NCBI GenBank assembly: GCA_016872515.1
Contig: VGZR01000010.1
Span: 1 to 64,000 of the forward strand
Reading direction: 5' to 3'
DNA length: 64,000 bases
Source: SAR202 cluster bacterium
GTDB lineage: Bacteria; Chloroflexota; Dehalococcoidia; Lucifugimonadales; VGZR01
Positions 57,792-64,000 of the stretch are shown piece after piece. The translations under genes were made by a program, and so were the position numbers. The first letter of the stretch is position 1; each line of letters opens with the position of its first letter. The notes beneath the pieces are model-generated. The model ran no database searches and was not told the DNA's origin. It saw nothing but the letters and a program-made list of their open reading frames with translations.

Positions 57792-60275
57792 GTGGCATCC
57801 GCCTCCAGCAATGCCCCGCCTGGTTCGAAGGTCGAGGCCCTCGCCAAGATTCTGGAGCTTGAGAAGCAGAAAGGCTACCAGGACAAGGCTGTGGGCGGCG
57901 GCCTCGACGCCTTCCTCCAGCGCTGGGCTGCGGAGTTGCGTCCCGCCCTTGGCAGCCTCAGCACCTACTCTTCGCTGGCGCCGGACGAACGGCGCCAGTG
58001 GGCTGCCAGGGTGCTCTCTCGAATCGCCGCACAGCCGGTCGCCGTGCCTCCCACGCAAGACCAGGCCCAACGTACCGCAGGAGCGGGCTTCAAACCGGCC
58101 CCTGCCCCGGGGATGCGGCGTGCTATCGAGCGTCCTAAGCCACCCCCTCCCAAAGCGATCTATCTTTCCGACGGCGCTCTCGTGTTGAAGTGGATGAGGC
58201 GCGGCGACATCGCCAGGCTCAAGAAGCTGGGCGTGGAGACAGTCCGGGACCTCGTCTATCTCTTCCCGTTCAGACACAACGACTTCGCCAACATCAGCAA
58301 GGTCTCGGAGTTGGAGTACGGCAAGGAGCAGACCGTCGCGGTAAGCGTGTGGGAGGCGACGAGGACGCAGCTTGGCCCCAACCCCAGACGCGCCTCGACC
58401 CAGGCGGTGCTGGGCGACGAGACGGGCAATGTGCGGGCGGTGTGGTTCAATCAGGGGTTCTTGGCCGACAAGCTCCGTCCAGGCACCAAGATGTTGCTGA
58501 GCGGCAAGGTCAGCGTCTTTCGGGGGCAGTTCGTCTTCGAGTCGCCGGAGTACGAGGTCCTGCGCGGCCAGGAAGAGCTGCTGAGCGCGGCCCGCCTGGT
58601 GCCCGTGTACCCCAGCACCGACGGGCTGTACCAGAAGTCTCTGCGGCGCTACGTGAAGCAGGCCGTGGACGCTGGCCTGCCCCAGCTCGAAGAGTTCCTG
58701 CCCTCGGACATCCGCCACCGCGAAGGGCTGATGGGGCTGCACGACGCCGTCGCCCAAATGCACTACCCGGACTCCACGGCCGACTGGAACGCCGCGCGCC
58801 GCCGACTCGCCTTCGACGAGCTCCTGGTCGTCCAGCTCGCCGTGCTCCAGCGCCGCCGCGCCTGGCAGTCCCAGCGGGTGGGCATCCCCCTCCGCATCGC
58901 GCAGGCGACCGACGGCTTCCTGGCCTCACTGCCCTTCGCTCTCACCGGCGCACAGAAGGACACCATTCAGGAGGTCCTGGCCGACCTGACCAAGGACACG
59001 CCGATGGCCCGCATGTTGCAGGGCGACGTGGGCAGCGGCAAGACGGTCGTCGCACTCACAGCCCTGGTCGCCGCCATCGCCGGCGGCTACCAGGGTGCCA
59101 TCATGGCCCCCACCGAGATCCTCGCCGAACAGCACTATCTGTCCATGCGGCGCCTCCTCTCGGGGGGGACGGCCTTCGAGCATCCAGGGGCCATCGCCTC
59201 AATCAAGGCCCCGTGGTCTCCGAAGCCCATCACGGTCGCGCTGCTGGTCGGCAGCCTCACTAAGCGGGTGAAGGACGACGTCCAGCGGCTCGTCTCCTCC
59301 GGCCAGGTGGACCTGGTCATCGGCACCCACGCGCTCCTCCAGTCGGGGGTGGAGCTTCCCAGGCTGGCCGTCGCCGTCGTGGACGAGCAGCACCGCTTCG
59401 GTGTCATGCAGCGGGCCTCGCTGAGTGAGAAGGGGCCGCGGCCCCATCTCCTGGCCATGTCCGCCACGCCCATCCCCCGCTCGTTGTACCTGACGCTGCA
59501 CGGCGACCTGGACATCTCGGTCCTCGACGAGATGCCGCCCGGCCGCAAGGAGGTGCGCACCCGCCTGGTACCACCCGACAGCCGCGAAACGGCCTACGAG
59601 TTCATCCGGCGCGAGGTGAAGGCGGGCCGCCAGGCCTTCGTCGTCTGCCCGCTCATCGAGGAGTCGGAAGCCATCCAGACCCGCGCGGCCGCGGCGGAGT
59701 ACGAGCGGCTTTCGACCCAGGTGTTCCCCGACCTGCGGCTGGGCCTTCTCCACGGGCGGCTGCCCCTTCGCGAGAAGGAGCGCGTCATGGACGCTTTCCA
59801 GAAGCGCGAGCTCGACATCCTCGTTTCCACGCCGGTCATCGAGGTCGGCATTGACATCCCCAACGCCACCGTGATGGCCATCGAGGGGGCCGACCGGTTC
59901 GGCCTGGCCCAATTGCACCAATTGCGGGGCAGGGTAGGGCGGGGCGGGCACCAGAGCTACTGCCTCCTCCTGGCCGACGCGCCCGGCCAGGACGCGCTAG
60001 AGCGGCTGAAGCTGGTCGAGCGCCTCCACGACGGCTTCCGCCTGGCCGAGGAGGACCTGCGGTTGCGGGGGATAGGGGACTACATCGGGACGCGGCAGAG
60101 CGGAATCTCCGAGTTCAAGGTCGCCCAGTTAACGGACCGGGACATGGTGGCCATGGCCCTGCGGGAGGCTGTCCAGCTGCTGGAGGCCGATCCCGACCTG
60201 AGTCGACAGGAACACGTGGGTATAGCGCGGCTCCTGGAGCGGTACACTGAGGCCATAGCCGCTGGCTTCAGCTAA
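57792..60275 (+). CDS. recG: ATP-dependent DNA helicase RecG
   Basis: This 827-residue helicase reverses stalled replication forks and processes Holliday junctions. There is an N-terminal helical region (1-90), a wedge/OB domain (about 150-290), then helicase motifs: GDVGSGKTVVALTA (Walker A), APTEILAEQH, VVDEQHRFGVMQR (DExH), MSATPIPRSL, VCPLIEESEA, GIDIPNATVM and LRGRVGRGGHQSYC. A low-complexity linker at about 95-120 contains GAGFKPAPAPG, encoded by a palindromic repeat at 58077-58105. The GTG at 57792 follows degV by 16 bases. Confidence 0.95.
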   Translation: MASASSNAPPGSKVEALAKILELEKQKGYQDKAVGGGLDAFLQRWAAELRPALGSLSTYSSLAPDERRQWAARVLSRIAAQPVAVPPTQDQAQRTAGAGFKPAPAPGMRRAIERPKPPPPKAIYLSDGALVLKWMRRGDIARLKKLGVETVRDLVYLFPFRHNDFANISKVSELEYGKEQTVAVSVWEATRTQLGPNPRRASTQAVLGDETGNVRAVWFNQGFLADKLRPGTKMLLSGKVSVFRGQFVFESPEYEVLRGQEELLSAARLVPVYPSTDGLYQKSLRRYVKQAVDAGLPQLEEFLPSDIRHREGLMGLHDAVAQMHYPDSTADWNAARRRLAFDELLVVQLAVLQRRRAWQSQRVGIPLRIAQATDGFLASLPFALTGAQKDTIQEVLADLTKDTPMARMLQGDVGSGKTVVALTALVAAIAGGYQGAIMAPTEILAEQHYLSMRRLLSGGTAFEHPGAIASIKAPWSPKPITVALLVGSLTKRVKDDVQRLVSSGQVDLVIGTHALLQSGVELPRLAVAVVDEQHRFGVMQRASLSEKGPRPHLLAMSATPIPRSLYLTLHGDLDISVLDEMPPGRKEVRTRLVPPDSRETAYEFIRREVKAGRQAFVVCPLIEESEAIQTRAAAAEYERLSTQVFPDLRLGLLHGRLPLREKERVMDAFQKRELDILVSTPVIEVGIDIPNATVMAIEGADRFGLAQLHQLRGRVGRGGHQSYCLLLADAPGQDALERLKLVERLHDGFRLAEEDLRLRGIGDYIGTRQSGISEFKVAQLTDRDMVAMALREAVQLLEADPDLSRQEHVGIARLLERYTEAIAAGFS
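58077..58105. repeat. Palindromic repeat inside recG
   Basis: GCAGGAGCGGGCTT-C-AAACCGGCCCCTGC is an imperfect palindrome that aligns with the intergenic copy at 18655-18681 (19 of 24 central positions alike). In recG it is translated in frame as AGAGFKPAPA in an interdomain linker. Confidence 0.5.
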
Positions 60276-60278
60276 TCA

Positions 60279-60307
60279 TTGACTCGCCCTTCCAGCGCCG
60301 ATAAGAT
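60279..60307 (+). promoter_or_regulatory. Probable promoter of the DHDPS-family gene
   Basis: TTGACT (60279-60284), 17 bases, TAAGAT (60302-60307), 51 bases upstream of the ATG at 60358. The -35 matches five of six consensus positions; the -10 four. Confidence 0.5.
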
Positions 60308-60357
60308 TAGGCTGTCTTCTTTCGTTCATTTCTTCACAATAGGGCCGACGGAGCGGT

Positions 60358-61323
60358 ATGGCTGACTACCGGAAGAGCGAGGCCAAGGAGTGGGCCCGCG
60401 AGACCCTGCGGGGCCAGTGGACCACCCTCATGACGCCCTTTACGCCCGGCGACGACGTGGATGAACCGGGCCTCCGTCGCAACATCCGCCACATCCGCAG
60501 CCTCGGCACTCGCGGCGGCGGCTGCACCTGGGGCATGGGCGAGTTCTGGAGCCTCACCCGCGAGGAGCGCCTGCGCGTCTTCGATGTCGTCGCCGATGAG
60601 GCCAACGGCGAGTGGCCCATCGCCGCCCACGTCACCCACACCTCCCTCAAAGAAGTGGACATCCTCGCCAACCATGCCAAGGTGTCTGGCTTCGACCTGC
60701 TCATACTGGCCGCCCCCTATATGGTCACCAAAACCGAACAGCAGGTCATAGACTTCACCCGCCGCGTGGCCGAACAGACCGACCTGGCCATCATGTTCTA
60801 CAACTCGCCCCAGTTCGGCATCGTCCTGAGCCCCCAGGGGCTCCAGAAGCTGTGCCAGATTCCCAACATCGTCGGCGTCAAGGAGGCCAGCTTCAACCAG
60901 CAAATCTCCATAGGCACCCACCTTCTCGTCGGCAAGGACGCCATCATCAGCACCCCTGACGAGTGGATCCTGTTCAAGGGCAAAGAGTTGGGGTTTGAGC
61001 AGCAGGTCATGTTCGCCAACACCTCCGACTGGCGGTTTGACCGCCCCGGCCGCAACCACTACGTCACCTTCATCGAGAAGGCCACCACCGGCGACCTGGA
61101 CAAGGACTACTACGAGAAGCACATCCGGGCGGTCAAGACCCTCTCGGACAAGTGGTGGGGGCGCACCGTACAGAAGTTCGGCGGCGCGCTGCCCGCCTCG
61201 CTGTGCAAGTACTGGGGCGAACTGATGGGCATGGCCGGTGGGCACGTCCGCCCACCGCTGGCTGACCTTTCGCCGGAAGACAAGGAAGAGTTGAATCGCG
61301 ATTTAGTGGCGGCCCGCCTCTAG
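60358..61323 (+). CDS. Dihydrodipicolinate synthase/N-acetylneuraminate lyase family protein
   Basis: This 321-residue TIM-barrel aldolase keeps the class I active site: Tyr in IMFYNSPQFGIV and Schiff-base Lys in VGVKEASFNQQ. An unusual GGGCTWGMGEFWSLTREERL replaces the GTTGE loop of DapA (compare TTGESPTLSTEE), so the carboxylate-binding part of the pocket differs and it is probably not a lysine gene. Pyruvate-dependent aldol cleavage or condensation with another aldehyde is likely. It precedes the MfnB homologue by 182 bases; whether they act together is unknown. GGAG lies four bases before the start. Confidence 0.82.
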   Translation: MADYRKSEAKEWARETLRGQWTTLMTPFTPGDDVDEPGLRRNIRHIRSLGTRGGGCTWGMGEFWSLTREERLRVFDVVADEANGEWPIAAHVTHTSLKEVDILANHAKVSGFDLLILAAPYMVTKTEQQVIDFTRRVAEQTDLAIMFYNSPQFGIVLSPQGLQKLCQIPNIVGVKEASFNQQISIGTHLLVGKDAIISTPDEWILFKGKELGFEQQVMFANTSDWRFDRPGRNHYVTFIEKATTGDLDKDYYEKHIRAVKTLSDKWWGRTVQKFGGALPASLCKYWGELMGMAGGHVRPPLADLSPEDKEELNRDLVAARL

Positions 61324-61407
61324 GCGCGCATATCTGACACATCTAAGGGAGTGGGGGGCTTTGGACGAAAGCCTCGCTTTATCTAGAAAAGGACTGCCTT
61401 TCACATT

Positions 61408-61447
61408 CCTCCTCCCCCTAGAGGGGGGAGAACCAAGGTGGGGGTGA
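61408..61447. repeat. GC-rich palindromic repeat before the MfnB homologue
   Basis: CCTCCCCCTAGAGGGGGGAG forms a stem and is followed by AACCAAGGTGGGGGTGA. A related unit, CCCTCCCCTAGACATGGGGG with AGGG, lies at 62518-62544 after the same gene, so two similar repeats flank it. Confidence 0.55.
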
Positions 61448-61505
61448 ATGCGTGCTCCCAACCACGACATAGAGTTCTTATGGAAAGCCAGGGAGTGACA
61501 ACAAC

Positions 61506-62495
61506 ATGCTGTTGATGGTAAGCGTGCAGAACTTGGCAGAGGCGTTCCAGGCCGTCAAGGGCGGCGCCGACATCGTGGACGTGAAGAACCTCCAGGAAGC
61601 CCTGGTCGGCTCGGCGCATCCCATGGTGGTCAAGCAGGTGCGCGAGGCTGTGCCCATGGAGCGGCATGCCAGCGTTACCCTCGGCGTCGTCCCCAACCAG
61701 GTCGGCACGGTGGCGATGGCGGTCTATACCGCAGGCAGCCTCAAAGCCACCTCGGTCAAGGTCGGGTTCATGAAGACTGAGTACCCCCTCGCCGCCGAGA
61801 TCCTCAAAGCCTCCCGTGAGGCCCTGAATGGCACCGAGACCAAGCTCATCGGCTCCCTCTTCGCCGACAACCCCCTTTACGACGGCCTCGACCCCCACCT
61901 GATGGTCAAGCTCGCCAAAGAGGGCCAGTGCGACGGCTTCCTCATCGACACCCTCACCAAAGACGGCCGCAACCTGTTCGACTTCATGTCCGAGCCTGAG
62001 CTTCGGGACATGGTCTTCGAGGGGAAGCAGGCGGGCCTGAGCACCGCCCTGTCCGGCCATCTACGCGTGGACAACCTCGACGAACTCGCCCGCATCAACC
62101 CCGACATCGTCGGCGTGCGCGGCGCCGTCTGCCAGAAGGGCGACCGCTCCAGCGGCGTGTACTGGGAGGCCGTCGCCGAGTTCAAGCGCCAGGTTGACCT
62201 GCGCAAGAGCGGCGAGGTGAACGTCTTCGGCTCCCCCGTCGCAGTACCTGGCCACACTACGAACGGCTCCAACGGCGGCTGGATCGTCATAGATGGGACC
62301 GGTAAGACCTGTGCAGGCATCCTCGCCGCCCTCACCGCCCAGGTGGACCGCGACAGCCACTCCTTCGTCGAGGTCATCATCCCGGACGTGCTCAACACCT
62401 ACGACGTCATCGTCTGGGCCGAGAAGGGCCGCCACAGCATCCTCACCCAGCGCAAGGACGACACCGGCGCCACCCGGATGCTCATCCGCCCATAG
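61506..62495 (+). CDS. MfnB (DUF556) homologue with a TusA-like C-terminal domain
   Basis: This 329-residue protein has an N-terminal TIM barrel of the (5-formylfuran-3-yl)methyl phosphate synthase family. The residues known or proposed to be catalytic in archaeal MfnB are found at matching places: Asp25 and Lys27 (ADIVDVKN), Lys85 (TSVKVGF), and Asp148 and Lys152 (LIDTLTKDGRNLFDFM). About 95 extra C-terminal residues follow a Gly/Asn linker: GGWIVIDGTGKTCAGILAAL and VIVWAEKGRHSILTQ, with one Cys where TusA-like sulfur carriers have CPxP. Archaeal MfnB makes the furan of methanofuran from glyceraldehyde-3-phosphate. No methanofuran genes are near, so the product here is open. Confidence 0.75.
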   Translation: MLLMVSVQNLAEAFQAVKGGADIVDVKNLQEALVGSAHPMVVKQVREAVPMERHASVTLGVVPNQVGTVAMAVYTAGSLKATSVKVGFMKTEYPLAAEILKASREALNGTETKLIGSLFADNPLYDGLDPHLMVKLAKEGQCDGFLIDTLTKDGRNLFDFMSEPELRDMVFEGKQAGLSTALSGHLRVDNLDELARINPDIVGVRGAVCQKGDRSSGVYWEAVAEFKRQVDLRKSGEVNVFGSPVAVPGHTTNGSNGGWIVIDGTGKTCAGILAALTAQVDRDSHSFVEVIIPDVLNTYDVIVWAEKGRHSILTQRKDDTGATRMLIRP

Positions 62496-62517
62496 GTGCG
62501 GGACAGGGGGCGTCGCG

Positions 62518-62568
62518 TCCCCCTCCCCTAGACATGGGGGAGGGCCTATGGCTCCGCTGCGGAGCCAT
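62518..62568. repeat. Two hairpins between the MfnB homologue and pheA
   Basis: CCCTCCCC-TAGACAT-GGGGGAGGG (about 62520-62544) is followed by a perfect 9-base palindrome ATGGCTCCG-CTG-CGGAGCCAT (62548-62568). The convergent genes end on either side, so the hairpins may terminate both, though no T-run follows. The first unit resembles the repeat at 61408. Confidence 0.6.
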
Positions 62569-62585
62569 CGGGGTGAGGGCAGGGA

Positions 62586-63458
62586 CTACTGGGCCGACGG
62601 CTTCGCCTTCGGGTACGACCCGAACACCTTCAACATCGAGACCTGGCGCTTCATCTGGTCGAGCGCCGTCTTCACCTTCGGGTCCTCTCTGTGCCCCTCC
62701 ACGTCTATTAGGAAGATGTAGCGGCCAAGGCTTTGCTTCGTAGGCCGCGACTCCACCTTCGCCAGGTTGAGGCCAAGCTCGGCGAAGCACTTCATCACGC
62801 CGTACAGCAGCCCCGGCCTGTCCGCATCGAACGAGAAGCAGATGGAAGTCTTGTCCGCGCCGGTCGGCGGACGGTCCGAGGTGGCAAGAACGACGAACCT
62901 GGTCACGTTGTTCGGGTTGTCCTCGATGTTCCGCGCAAGCACGGCCGCCCCGTAAAGCTCTGCTGCCCGTAGCGTGCCGATGGCGGCGGCGCGCGCGTCG
63001 CTCTTCTTGAGCTGCTCCACCGCCGCTGCGGTGCTGAGCGAGGCCACCAACTCCGCGTTCGGGAACCGCTCCGTCAGGAAGCCCCTGCACTGCGCCAGCG
63101 GCTGCGGGTGGGAGTGGATGACCCGTATGTCTCCTAGCCTCGTCCCTGGCCGGGCGAGCAGGTTGTTGTGGATGGGCAGCACCAGTTCGTGCCGGATGAA
63201 TAGATTGGAGTCGTGGATGAGCAGGTCGAGCGTGAACGTCACCGAGCCTTCGAGGCTGTTCTCGATAGGCACAACGCCCTCGTCTACCTTTCCTTGTTCC
63301 ACAGCGGCGGCCACGGCCGGTATCGAAGGGCAGGCGGCGTACTGCGCTTGCGGATCGTACGCGATGGCCGCCTCTTCGGAGAACGTGCCGGCAGGCCCCA
63401 TGTACGCCAGTCTCTTTTTCAAGGCTTGTGATACCCCTCTCTGAACATCCTTAGTCAA
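62586..63458 (-). CDS. pheA: Prephenate dehydratase
   Basis: This 290-residue stand-alone enzyme converts prephenate to phenylpyruvate in phenylalanine synthesis. The catalytic domain has LAYMGPAGTFSEEAAIAY, GVVPIENSLEGSVTFTLDLL and the TRF motif in NNVTRFVVLA. A C-terminal ACT regulatory domain follows (PGLLYGVMKCFAELGLNLAK) with ESRPTK, the phenylalanine-binding ESRP motif, so feedback inhibition is expected. No chorismate mutase domain is fused. The ATG at 63458 is used; a Met at residue 20 starts the conserved part. Confidence 0.94.
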   Translation of the reverse strand: MTKDVQRGVSQALKKRLAYMGPAGTFSEEAAIAYDPQAQYAACPSIPAVAAAVEQGKVDEGVVPIENSLEGSVTFTLDLLIHDSNLFIRHELVLPIHNNLLARPGTRLGDIRVIHSHPQPLAQCRGFLTERFPNAELVASLSTAAAVEQLKKSDARAAAIGTLRAAELYGAAVLARNIEDNPNNVTRFVVLATSDRPPTGADKTSICFSFDADRPGLLYGVMKCFAELGLNLAKVESRPTKQSLGRYIFLIDVEGHREDPKVKTALDQMKRQVSMLKVFGSYPKAKPSAQ

Positions 63459-63833
63459 TCTTGCGTGATTCCCAGGAGCCGGTCAGGCTGCTCGCGCACG
63501 CATGGTCGAAGCCATGGCCGCAGCGATTCTATGGGCGAGTATTTGGGAGTGTCAACGTTGGGTCCGTGTTTTCGGCATTTTAACTCTAAGGGTTATCCCT
63601 TATAGCTTTGGCCGTCGCACCTAAGGAACGCCCGATTGTTCAAGGGGTCTCGGGTTGTTAGGGAATGTGTGTTTGGCGTGTTCGTGAACGGCTGGAAGGT
63701 TGCTATCCCATGTCCGGCAAGGACCTAGGGGTATGAACTGGTTCAGATAGATGTGAGACAGTTGCGAGGGTAAGGAACCAGAGGCCATCCTTCTGGGTGA
63801 GATCACGATCATCCATAAAGGAGGACCTCTCGC
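63459..63833. other. Intergenic region before the transposase
   Basis: No gene is seen in these 375 bases. A small palindrome, TAAGGG-TTAT-CCCTTA, lies near 63589-63604. From about 63752, TGTGAGACAGTTGCGAGGGT could be the left terminal repeat of the insertion sequence whose transposase starts at 63834; the other end is outside the window. Confidence 0.35.
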
Positions 63834-64000
63834 ATGCGCATCGTAGGATCACCCCGATCCTTCCGGCAACTGGCGCGGCACCGGCCGTTGGCGCTTTCGG
63901 AACGCGCGGCAATCCGTTTGCGCCTGGTGTCGGCCTGGATGGCCCTGCGGGCCCGTGGAGCCGGCAGCCAGGAAGCAGCGGAGGTGGTGGGTGTGAGCCG
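63834..64000 (+). mobile_element. Transposase, N-terminal part (runs off window)
   Basis: An ATG at 63834, with AGGAGG nine bases upstream, opens a frame of at least 55 codons to the right edge. The visible part reads SFRQLARHRPLALSERAAIR, LRLVSAWMALRARGAGSQEA and AEVVGVSR, a helix-turn-helix start typical of IS481/IS3-like transposases, where VGVSR is usually followed by ATLYRW. The catalytic DDE core is outside the window, so the family is a guess. Confidence 0.6.

What the first reader, a model, noticed from the sequence alone, without database searches (positions are those of the whole stretch)
61506..62495. MfnB-type furan synthase homologue with a sulfur-carrier-like tail in a bacterium
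All catalytic Lys/Asp positions of archaeal MfnB are kept, with Lys27 and Lys85 at identical numbers, yet there are no methanofuran or one-carbon genes around. A TusA-like C-terminal domain with a single Cys suggests a different product, perhaps sulfur-containing. A DHDPS-family aldolase with an altered pocket lies upstream and might be a partner.
Basis: partly seen in the sequence, partly recalled or inferred. Interest (0 to 1): 0.62.

Follow-up and report, generated by a model that had tools for sequence, protein, structure and literature searches.

The report
Aldolase–furan synthase–TusA three-domain enzyme
Uncultured Chloroflexota bacteria (SAR202 and relatives) carry a conserved enzyme pair, in many species a single fused protein, that joins an aldolase, a furan-ring-forming enzyme known from the methanofuran coenzyme pathway, and a small sulfur-carrier-like domain, although they lack the methanofuran and one-carbon marker genes that were tested, so they probably make an unknown furan-type compound.

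Summary
ORF 61506-62495 is a 329-aa protein. Residues 1-230 are a PF04476/MfnB-type 4-HFC-P synthase (3e-55; 38% to MJ1099) with D25, K27, K85, D151, K155 and R217 (MJ numbering) kept. The tail is a real TusA-fold domain: all 57 homologous tails scanned hit Pfam TusA (best 2e-7), AF2 pLDDT is 96, and E. coli TusA is a full-length match (TM 0.77/0.71). Its single Cys is invariant (81/81), as is TusA's Asp51, but the CPxP motif and IscS-docking residues are gone.

It lies immediately upstream in 79 of 80 loci from other genomes, is fused to MfnB-TusA in 26 (one origin), and occurs in exactly the same 11 of 294 class genomes. Its alpha-keto-acid motif GxxGE has an invariant Trp in place of the first Gly.

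FTR, MCH and MfnF are absent from all 11 carriers tested, so methanofuran is very unlikely. I read the unit as a furan-forming enzyme for an unknown metabolite. The product, the aldolase's reaction and any sulfur role are undemonstrated. It is a new architecture built on known families.

The parts
60358..61323 (+). DHDPS/NAL-superfamily class I aldolase, 321 aa (obligate partner; fused N-terminally to the furan synthase in 26 of 80 homologous loci). Schiff-base K175 and Y148 kept; alpha-keto-acid motif GxxGE replaced by W58-G/N-M-G-E62.
   Evidence: PF00701 2.4e-30; 59/59 relatives hit PF00701; AF2 pLDDT 93.9, Foldseek best YagE/DapA TM 0.80/0.86; residue counts over 74 sequences
61506..62195 (+). 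MfnB-type (PF04476) 4-HFC-P synthase domain, residues 1-230
   Evidence: Pfam 3.2e-55, MJ1099 1.4e-40, catalytic D25 K27 K85 D148 K152 R214 kept
62196..62273 (+). Variable linker between the furan-synthase and TusA-like domains
   Evidence: gappy, poorly conserved columns in A1
62274..62492 (+). TusA-fold C-terminal domain, residues 257-329, with invariant C269, D263, D300, W304, H310
   Evidence: 57/57 family members hit Pfam TusA, best 2.3e-7; AF2 pLDDT 96, beta-alpha-beta-alpha-beta-beta; Foldseek TusA 1dcj TM 0.77/0.71, rmsd 2.0; residue counts
60279..60307 (+). sigma-70-like promoter match just upstream of the aldolase gene (weak)
   Evidence: one match, 0.2 expected in shuffles

Best explanation
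The unit is a furan-forming multi-domain enzyme encoded by two adjacent genes (aldolase; MfnB-TusA), fused into one ~700-aa polypeptide in one sub-clade. Most likely reading: the MfnB domain uses Lys27 chemistry to condense two triose-phosphate units (GA3P eliminated to a methylglyoxal enol, plus DHAP) into a phosphorylated furan aldehyde of the 4-HFC-P type. The DHDPS-like domain, a second Schiff-base enzyme (K175/Y148), acts on the same pathway by direct hand-over, most likely on the furan aldehyde with a short keto or aldehyde co-substrate. The TusA-like tail is a dedicated single-Cys carrier or docking domain for the intermediate or for sulfur, not fed through the standard TusA-IscS interface. 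Shown: domain identities, conserved catalytic residues, obligate partnership, absence of FTR, MCH and MfnF. Inferred: that the furan ring still forms, the direction of hand-over, the aldolase co-substrate, the Cys role, the end product.
For: Catalytic residues of MfnB invariant over 59 rows. Aldolase directly upstream on the same strand in 79 of 80 loci from other genomes, median gap 43 bp among 53 separate pairs, fused in 26; the exception keeps it elsewhere in its genome. Fusion has a single origin, SH-aLRT 94. MfnB-TusA and this aldolase subfamily occur in exactly the same 11 of 294 class genomes. No other operon partner is conserved, so the unit looks self-contained. TusA fold; Cys 81/81, Asp51 81/81, Asp45 77/81. 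FTR, MfnF and MCH absent from 11/11 carriers with positive controls. The MfnB mechanism is as reviewed in PMC11365854.
Against: The MfnB domain scores below NCBIfam's equivalog cut-offs (182 vs 341 bits). It has clade-specific changes at positions shared by the archaeal, Streptomyces and Azospirillum homologues compared (D61 to V) or by some of them (K65 to Q, S188 to H in MJ numbering), so the product need not be 4-HFC-P. The aldolase motif that normally binds an alpha-keto-acid carboxylate is broken, which argues against simple pyruvate use. CPxP and IscS-docking residues are lost in the tail. No product, co-substrate or downstream gene is identified.
Confidence: 0.5

Rival explanations
1. 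The aldolase works upstream: like archaeal KD(P)G aldolases of the same superfamily it cleaves a 2-keto-3-deoxy sugar (phosphate) and hands glyceraldehyde(-3-phosphate) to the MfnB domain.
For: Fusion order aldolase-MfnB and short linker (25-80 aa) fit substrate hand-over; MfnB's known substrate is GA3P; 38/59 members match Arch_KDGaldase weakly; Foldseek top hit is YagE, in the same superfamily.
Against: GA3P is a housekeeping metabolite that needs no dedicated supply; GxxGE has Trp for its first Gly in 74/74 sequences; no sugar-acid genes are conserved next to the unit.
Confidence: 0.2
2. The MfnB domain has changed its reaction and no furan is made; both barrels perform another aldol or dehydration sequence on a phosphorylated sugar.
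For: Only 38% identity to MJ1099, whereas Streptomyces homologues keep 59%; V61, Q65 and H185 are invariant in this clade but differ from the compared homologues; below equivalog cut-offs.
Against: All compared catalytic and phosphate-binding residues (D25, K27, K85, D151, K155, R208, R217) are kept across the family.
Confidence: 0.2
3. It is the first step of a methanofuran or methylofuran-like one-carbon coenzyme.
For: PF04476 homology; proteobacterial methylotrophs use MfnB/Orf22 for methylofuran (PMC8141765), as in the Azospirillum locus.
Against: FTR, MCH and MfnF (TIGR03123) absent from 11/11 carrier genomes with positive controls; other one-carbon markers were not searched.
Confidence: 0.02
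4. The TusA-like tail is only a structural, oligomerisation or regulatory module and its Cys carries nothing.
For: CPxP lost in 81/81 and IscS-docking residues not conserved; no stand-alone TusA found in G000 and some other carriers.
Against: Cys 81/81, Asp51 81/81, Asp45 77/81 and exactly one Cys in 80/81 tails indicate selection on a reactive Cys site.
Confidence: 0.3

Closest known systems
MfnB, 4-HFC-P synthase (PF04476; MJ1099, PDB 4rc1/4u9p)
   Same: TIM-barrel family, D25/K27/K85/D151/K155/R208/R217 kept, 38% identity over residues 1-230
   Different: C-terminal TusA-fold domain, obligate aldolase partner or fusion, clade-specific V61/Q65/H185, no FTR, MCH or MfnF in the genome
Orf22 (bacterial MfnB of methylofuran synthesis, methylotrophs; Azospirillum locus L120)
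   Same: Bacterial PF04476 protein
   Different: Single-domain, embedded in a formylmethanofuran/methylofuran-type cluster, about 30% identical to ours
Streptomyces PF04476 proteins in an ALDH-ADH-methyltransferase operon (L118, L119)
   Same: Bacterial MfnB homologue outside a methanofuran cluster
   Different: Single-domain, 59% identical to MJ1099 but 35-36% to ours, different partners
TusA / YhhP (PF01206; PDB 1dcj, 3lvj)
   Same: Beta-alpha-beta-alpha-beta-beta fold, Cys19, Asp45, Asp51 and Asp13 equivalents kept
   Different: CPxP replaced by CAx(I/V); R27, R31, M24, F58 not kept; covalently attached to a furan synthase
DHDPS/NAL superfamily (DapA, NAL, KdgD, YagE)
   Same: TIM barrel, Schiff-base Lys and conserved Tyr
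   Different: First Gly of GxxGE replaced by invariant Trp, DapA Arg138 replaced by Phe153, below all curated NCBIfam cut-offs

Membership tests
4-HFC-P synthase family (PF04476) | Match above Pfam gathering score | tested here: met
   187.8 bits vs 22.4 cut-off
4-HFC-P synthase family (PF04476) | Catalytic D25, K27, K85, D151, K155 and R217 | tested here: met
   Aligned with MJ1099 and invariant in the 59-row alignment
(5-formylfuran-3-yl)methyl phosphate synthase equivalog (NCBIfam) | Score above equivalog cut-off | tested here: not met
   182.4 vs 341 and 174.2 vs 304 bits
(5-formylfuran-3-yl)methyl phosphate synthase equivalog (NCBIfam) | Makes 4-HFC-P from GA3P | not testable with these tools
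   needs a 280-nm assay
Methanofuran/methylofuran pathway | FTR, MCH, MfnF present in the genome | tested here: not met
   0 of 11 carriers, positive controls in methanogens
TusA family (PF01206) | Sequence match | tested here: met
   57/57 members match at E<=1, best 2.3e-7; the window member alone is 14.3 bits vs 28.6 cut-off
TusA family (PF01206) | Fold | tested here: met
   AF2 pLDDT 96; 1dcj TM 0.77/0.71, though Foldseek E is only 1e-2
TusA family (PF01206) | Cys plus Asp45/Asp51 | tested here: met
   81/81, 77/81, 81/81
TusA family (PF01206) | CPxP motif | tested here: not met
   Pro20 to Ala in 79/81, Pro22 to Ile/Val in 81/81
TusA family (PF01206) | IscS-docking residues M24, R27, R31, F58 | tested here: not met
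   roles from PMC2854127
TusA family (PF01206) | Accepts persulfide sulfur | not testable with these tools
   biochemistry needed
DHDPS/NAL superfamily (PF00701) | Fold, Schiff-base Lys, Tyr | tested here: met
   PF00701 2.4e-30; K175 and Y148 74/74; TM 0.80/0.86
DHDPS/NAL superfamily (PF00701) | GxxGE alpha-keto-acid motif | tested here: not met
   W58 in 74/74 in place of the first Gly; G61-E62 kept (motif role PMC5380162)

The most novel reading that the evidence does not exclude
A previously undescribed biosynthetic system: a fused aldolase-furan synthase-TusA enzyme that builds a furan (possibly thio-furan or chain-extended furan) metabolite or cofactor in SAR202/Dehalococcoidia, unrelated to methanofuran, with the TusA-like Cys carrying sulfur or the intermediate.
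Probability: 0.4. Interest if true: 0.82.

Novelty: new variant of a known kind. Interest (0 to 1): 0.62.

Why it matters
SAR202 and related Chloroflexota are uncultured, and much of their chemistry is unknown. A dedicated furan-ring former with an aldolase and a carrier-like domain, retained even in genomes of 1.2-1.3 Mb, points to an unrecognised metabolite or cofactor. Because the unit looks self-contained and is naturally fused in many species, it can be expressed as one protein and tested directly, which would also show how MfnB chemistry is used outside one-carbon metabolism.

Tried and rejected
Methanofuran/methylofuran route: rejected for the markers tested. Wider operon partners: neighbours such as prephenate dehydratase, Trk potassium uptake genes, RecG, DAK/DegV-like and UbiD/UbiA recur but vary in position and are often on the other strand; read as synteny. 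PDB hmmsearch with the tail profile gave no hits, so the TusA assignment rests on Pfam per-member hits and fold. Rfam on 60000-64000: none. Phage records: no match. Plasmid MfnB homologues: none covers 80% of the query, and the listed ones stop at about residue 240. The phylum-wide profile search gave two weak tail-only matches, both TusA-type proteins, and one weak match (9e-4) in a frame with stops, judged spurious. The genome-contig scan kept 80 of 156 relatives, so the other 76 were not examined. One literature search of open papers with PF04476-type terms found nothing.

Full report
What is there. The ORF at 61506-62495 (+) encodes 329 aa. Residues 3-226 match PF04476 (4-HFC-P synthase) at 3.2e-55 and MJ1099 at 1.4e-40. 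In an alignment with MJ1099, two Streptomyces homologues, an Azospirillum one and five relatives of the window protein, D25, K27, K85, D151, K155, R208 and R217 (MJ numbering) are all kept, and the corresponding positions are invariant in the 59-row family alignment. The protein is single-copy in its genome.

The tail. For the window sequence alone the TusA match is weak, but every one of 57 homologous tails hits Pfam TusA, best 2.3e-7. AlphaFold2 gives pLDDT 96 with the order beta-alpha-beta-alpha-beta-beta. In Foldseek, E. coli TusA (1dcj) is a full-length match, TM 0.77/0.71 and rmsd 2.0 A; E-values are modest (about 1e-2) because the domain is short, and unrelated alpha/beta proteins are interspersed. 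A phylum-wide profile search also picked up two TusA-type proteins through the tail alone, weakly. Aligned with E. coli TusA, the acceptor Cys19 is present in 81/81, Asp45 in 77/81, Asp51 in 81/81; Pro20 and Pro22 of CPxP are gone, and the IscS-contacting M24, R27, R31 and F58 are not conserved (residue roles from PMC2854127). A PF01206 search found no match at E <= 0.001 in G000 and in four of the other seven carriers searched; since that search also failed to report most of the MfnB-attached tails themselves, divergent TusA copies could have been missed.

The partner. The gene upstream (60358-61323) is a DHDPS-superfamily protein (PF00701, 2.4e-30). A genome-contig scan kept 80 loci, all with the full MfnB-TusA protein at 63-79% identity, titled Chloroflexi/Chloroflexota, SAR202 or Dehalococcoidia except two (L076 Planctomycetota, L088 Actinomycetota). 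In 79 of 80 the aldolase lies directly upstream on the same strand; in 53 it is a separate gene (median gap 43 bp) and in 26 it is fused, with linkers of 25-80 aa. In the window itself the gap is 182 bp. The one exception has the aldolase elsewhere in its genome. The fused form is one side of a branch in the tree (SH-aLRT 94). In a sample of 294 genomes of the class, MfnB-TusA and the aldolase (E <= 1e-60) occur in exactly the same 11; the naive chance is about 3e-20, which ignores shared ancestry. Carriers are patchy across families, and two of about 1.3 Mb and one of 1.2 Mb keep the unit. No third gene is consistently linked.

The aldolase pocket. K175 (Schiff base) and Y148 are invariant in 74/74, but the alpha-keto-acid motif GxxGE reads W-(G/N/A)-M-G-E, with W58 in 74/74 (M60 is Ile once). 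DapA's substrate Arg138 is Phe153 (alignments; Arg138 role from general knowledge). AF2 pLDDT is 94 and the nearest solved folds are YagE and DapA, TM about 0.80/0.86 at 21-23% identity. NCBIfam scores are all far below cut-offs. So this is a class I Schiff-base enzyme of unassigned specificity. The invariant aromatic residues W58, F63 and W64 would suit a ring substrate such as a furan aldehyde; that is inference.

What it is not. FTR, MCH and MfnF (TIGR03123) are absent from 11/11 carriers while controls in methanogens ring. Other one-carbon markers were not searched. The proteobacterial methylofuran context, seen in Azospirillum (PMC8141765), is therefore very unlikely here. Streptomyces plasmids show a third context: MfnB with aldehyde dehydrogenase, alcohol dehydrogenase and methyltransferase. 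PF04476 thus probably already serves different products in bacteria.

Mechanism. For archaeal MfnB, one GA3P loses phosphate to a methylglyoxal enol, another isomerises to DHAP, and the two condense and cyclise (PMC11365854). With the catalytic residues kept, the most likely activity is the same type of furan formation. V61, Q65 and H185 are invariant in this clade and differ from MJ1099's D61, K65 and S188, so the exact substrate pair or product may differ. I infer that the aldolase and the furan synthase exchange an aldehyde intermediate, because fusion and exact co-occurrence indicate that they work together. The direction (furan aldehyde out, or triose in) is not decided. The tail's Cys with its two Asp looks reactive, but the sulfur-delivery interface of TusA is gone; a carrier of sulfur from another donor, a carrier of the intermediate, or a structural role all remain.

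Verdict. It is a new architecture of known families with an unknown product. Confidence is high for domains and partnership, about 0.5 for the mechanism.

Noticed in passing
L118:9001-13263; L119:8980-13350 (Streptomyces plasmids): MfnB homologue (59% to MJ1099) followed by aldehyde dehydrogenase, alcohol dehydrogenase and SAM methyltransferase: looks like a separate bacterial furan pathway.
   Followed up: partly
L121:4995-5948; L122:4995-5948 (Ensifer, Ruegeria plasmids): DHDPS-family proteins sharing the window aldolase's N-terminal (YxKxxAK) and C-terminal (KYWxELxGxxGGxVRxP) signatures sit next to 3-hydroxyanthranilate 3,4-dioxygenase and aspartate dehydrogenase genes.
   Followed up: partly
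62586-63458 (-): Prephenate dehydratase gene convergent with the unit; a prephenate dehydratase-like gene lies within four genes downstream in 39 of 80 loci, almost always on the other strand.
   Followed up: partly
61405-61450: G/C-rich palindromic stretch (CCTCCCCCTAGAGGGGGGAG) in the 182-bp gap between the two genes; the motif around it occurs once in the window.
   Followed up: partly
L076, L088: Contigs labelled Planctomycetota and Actinomycetota carry the unit inside the Chloroflexota tree; mis-binning or gene transfer, not resolved.
   Followed up: no
L104:982-3177: A 731-aa Chloroflexota protein reads like a pyridine nucleotide-disulfide reductase with rhodanese-like, TusA and DsrE-like parts in one chain (by eye, apart from the TusA profile match).
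   Followed up: no
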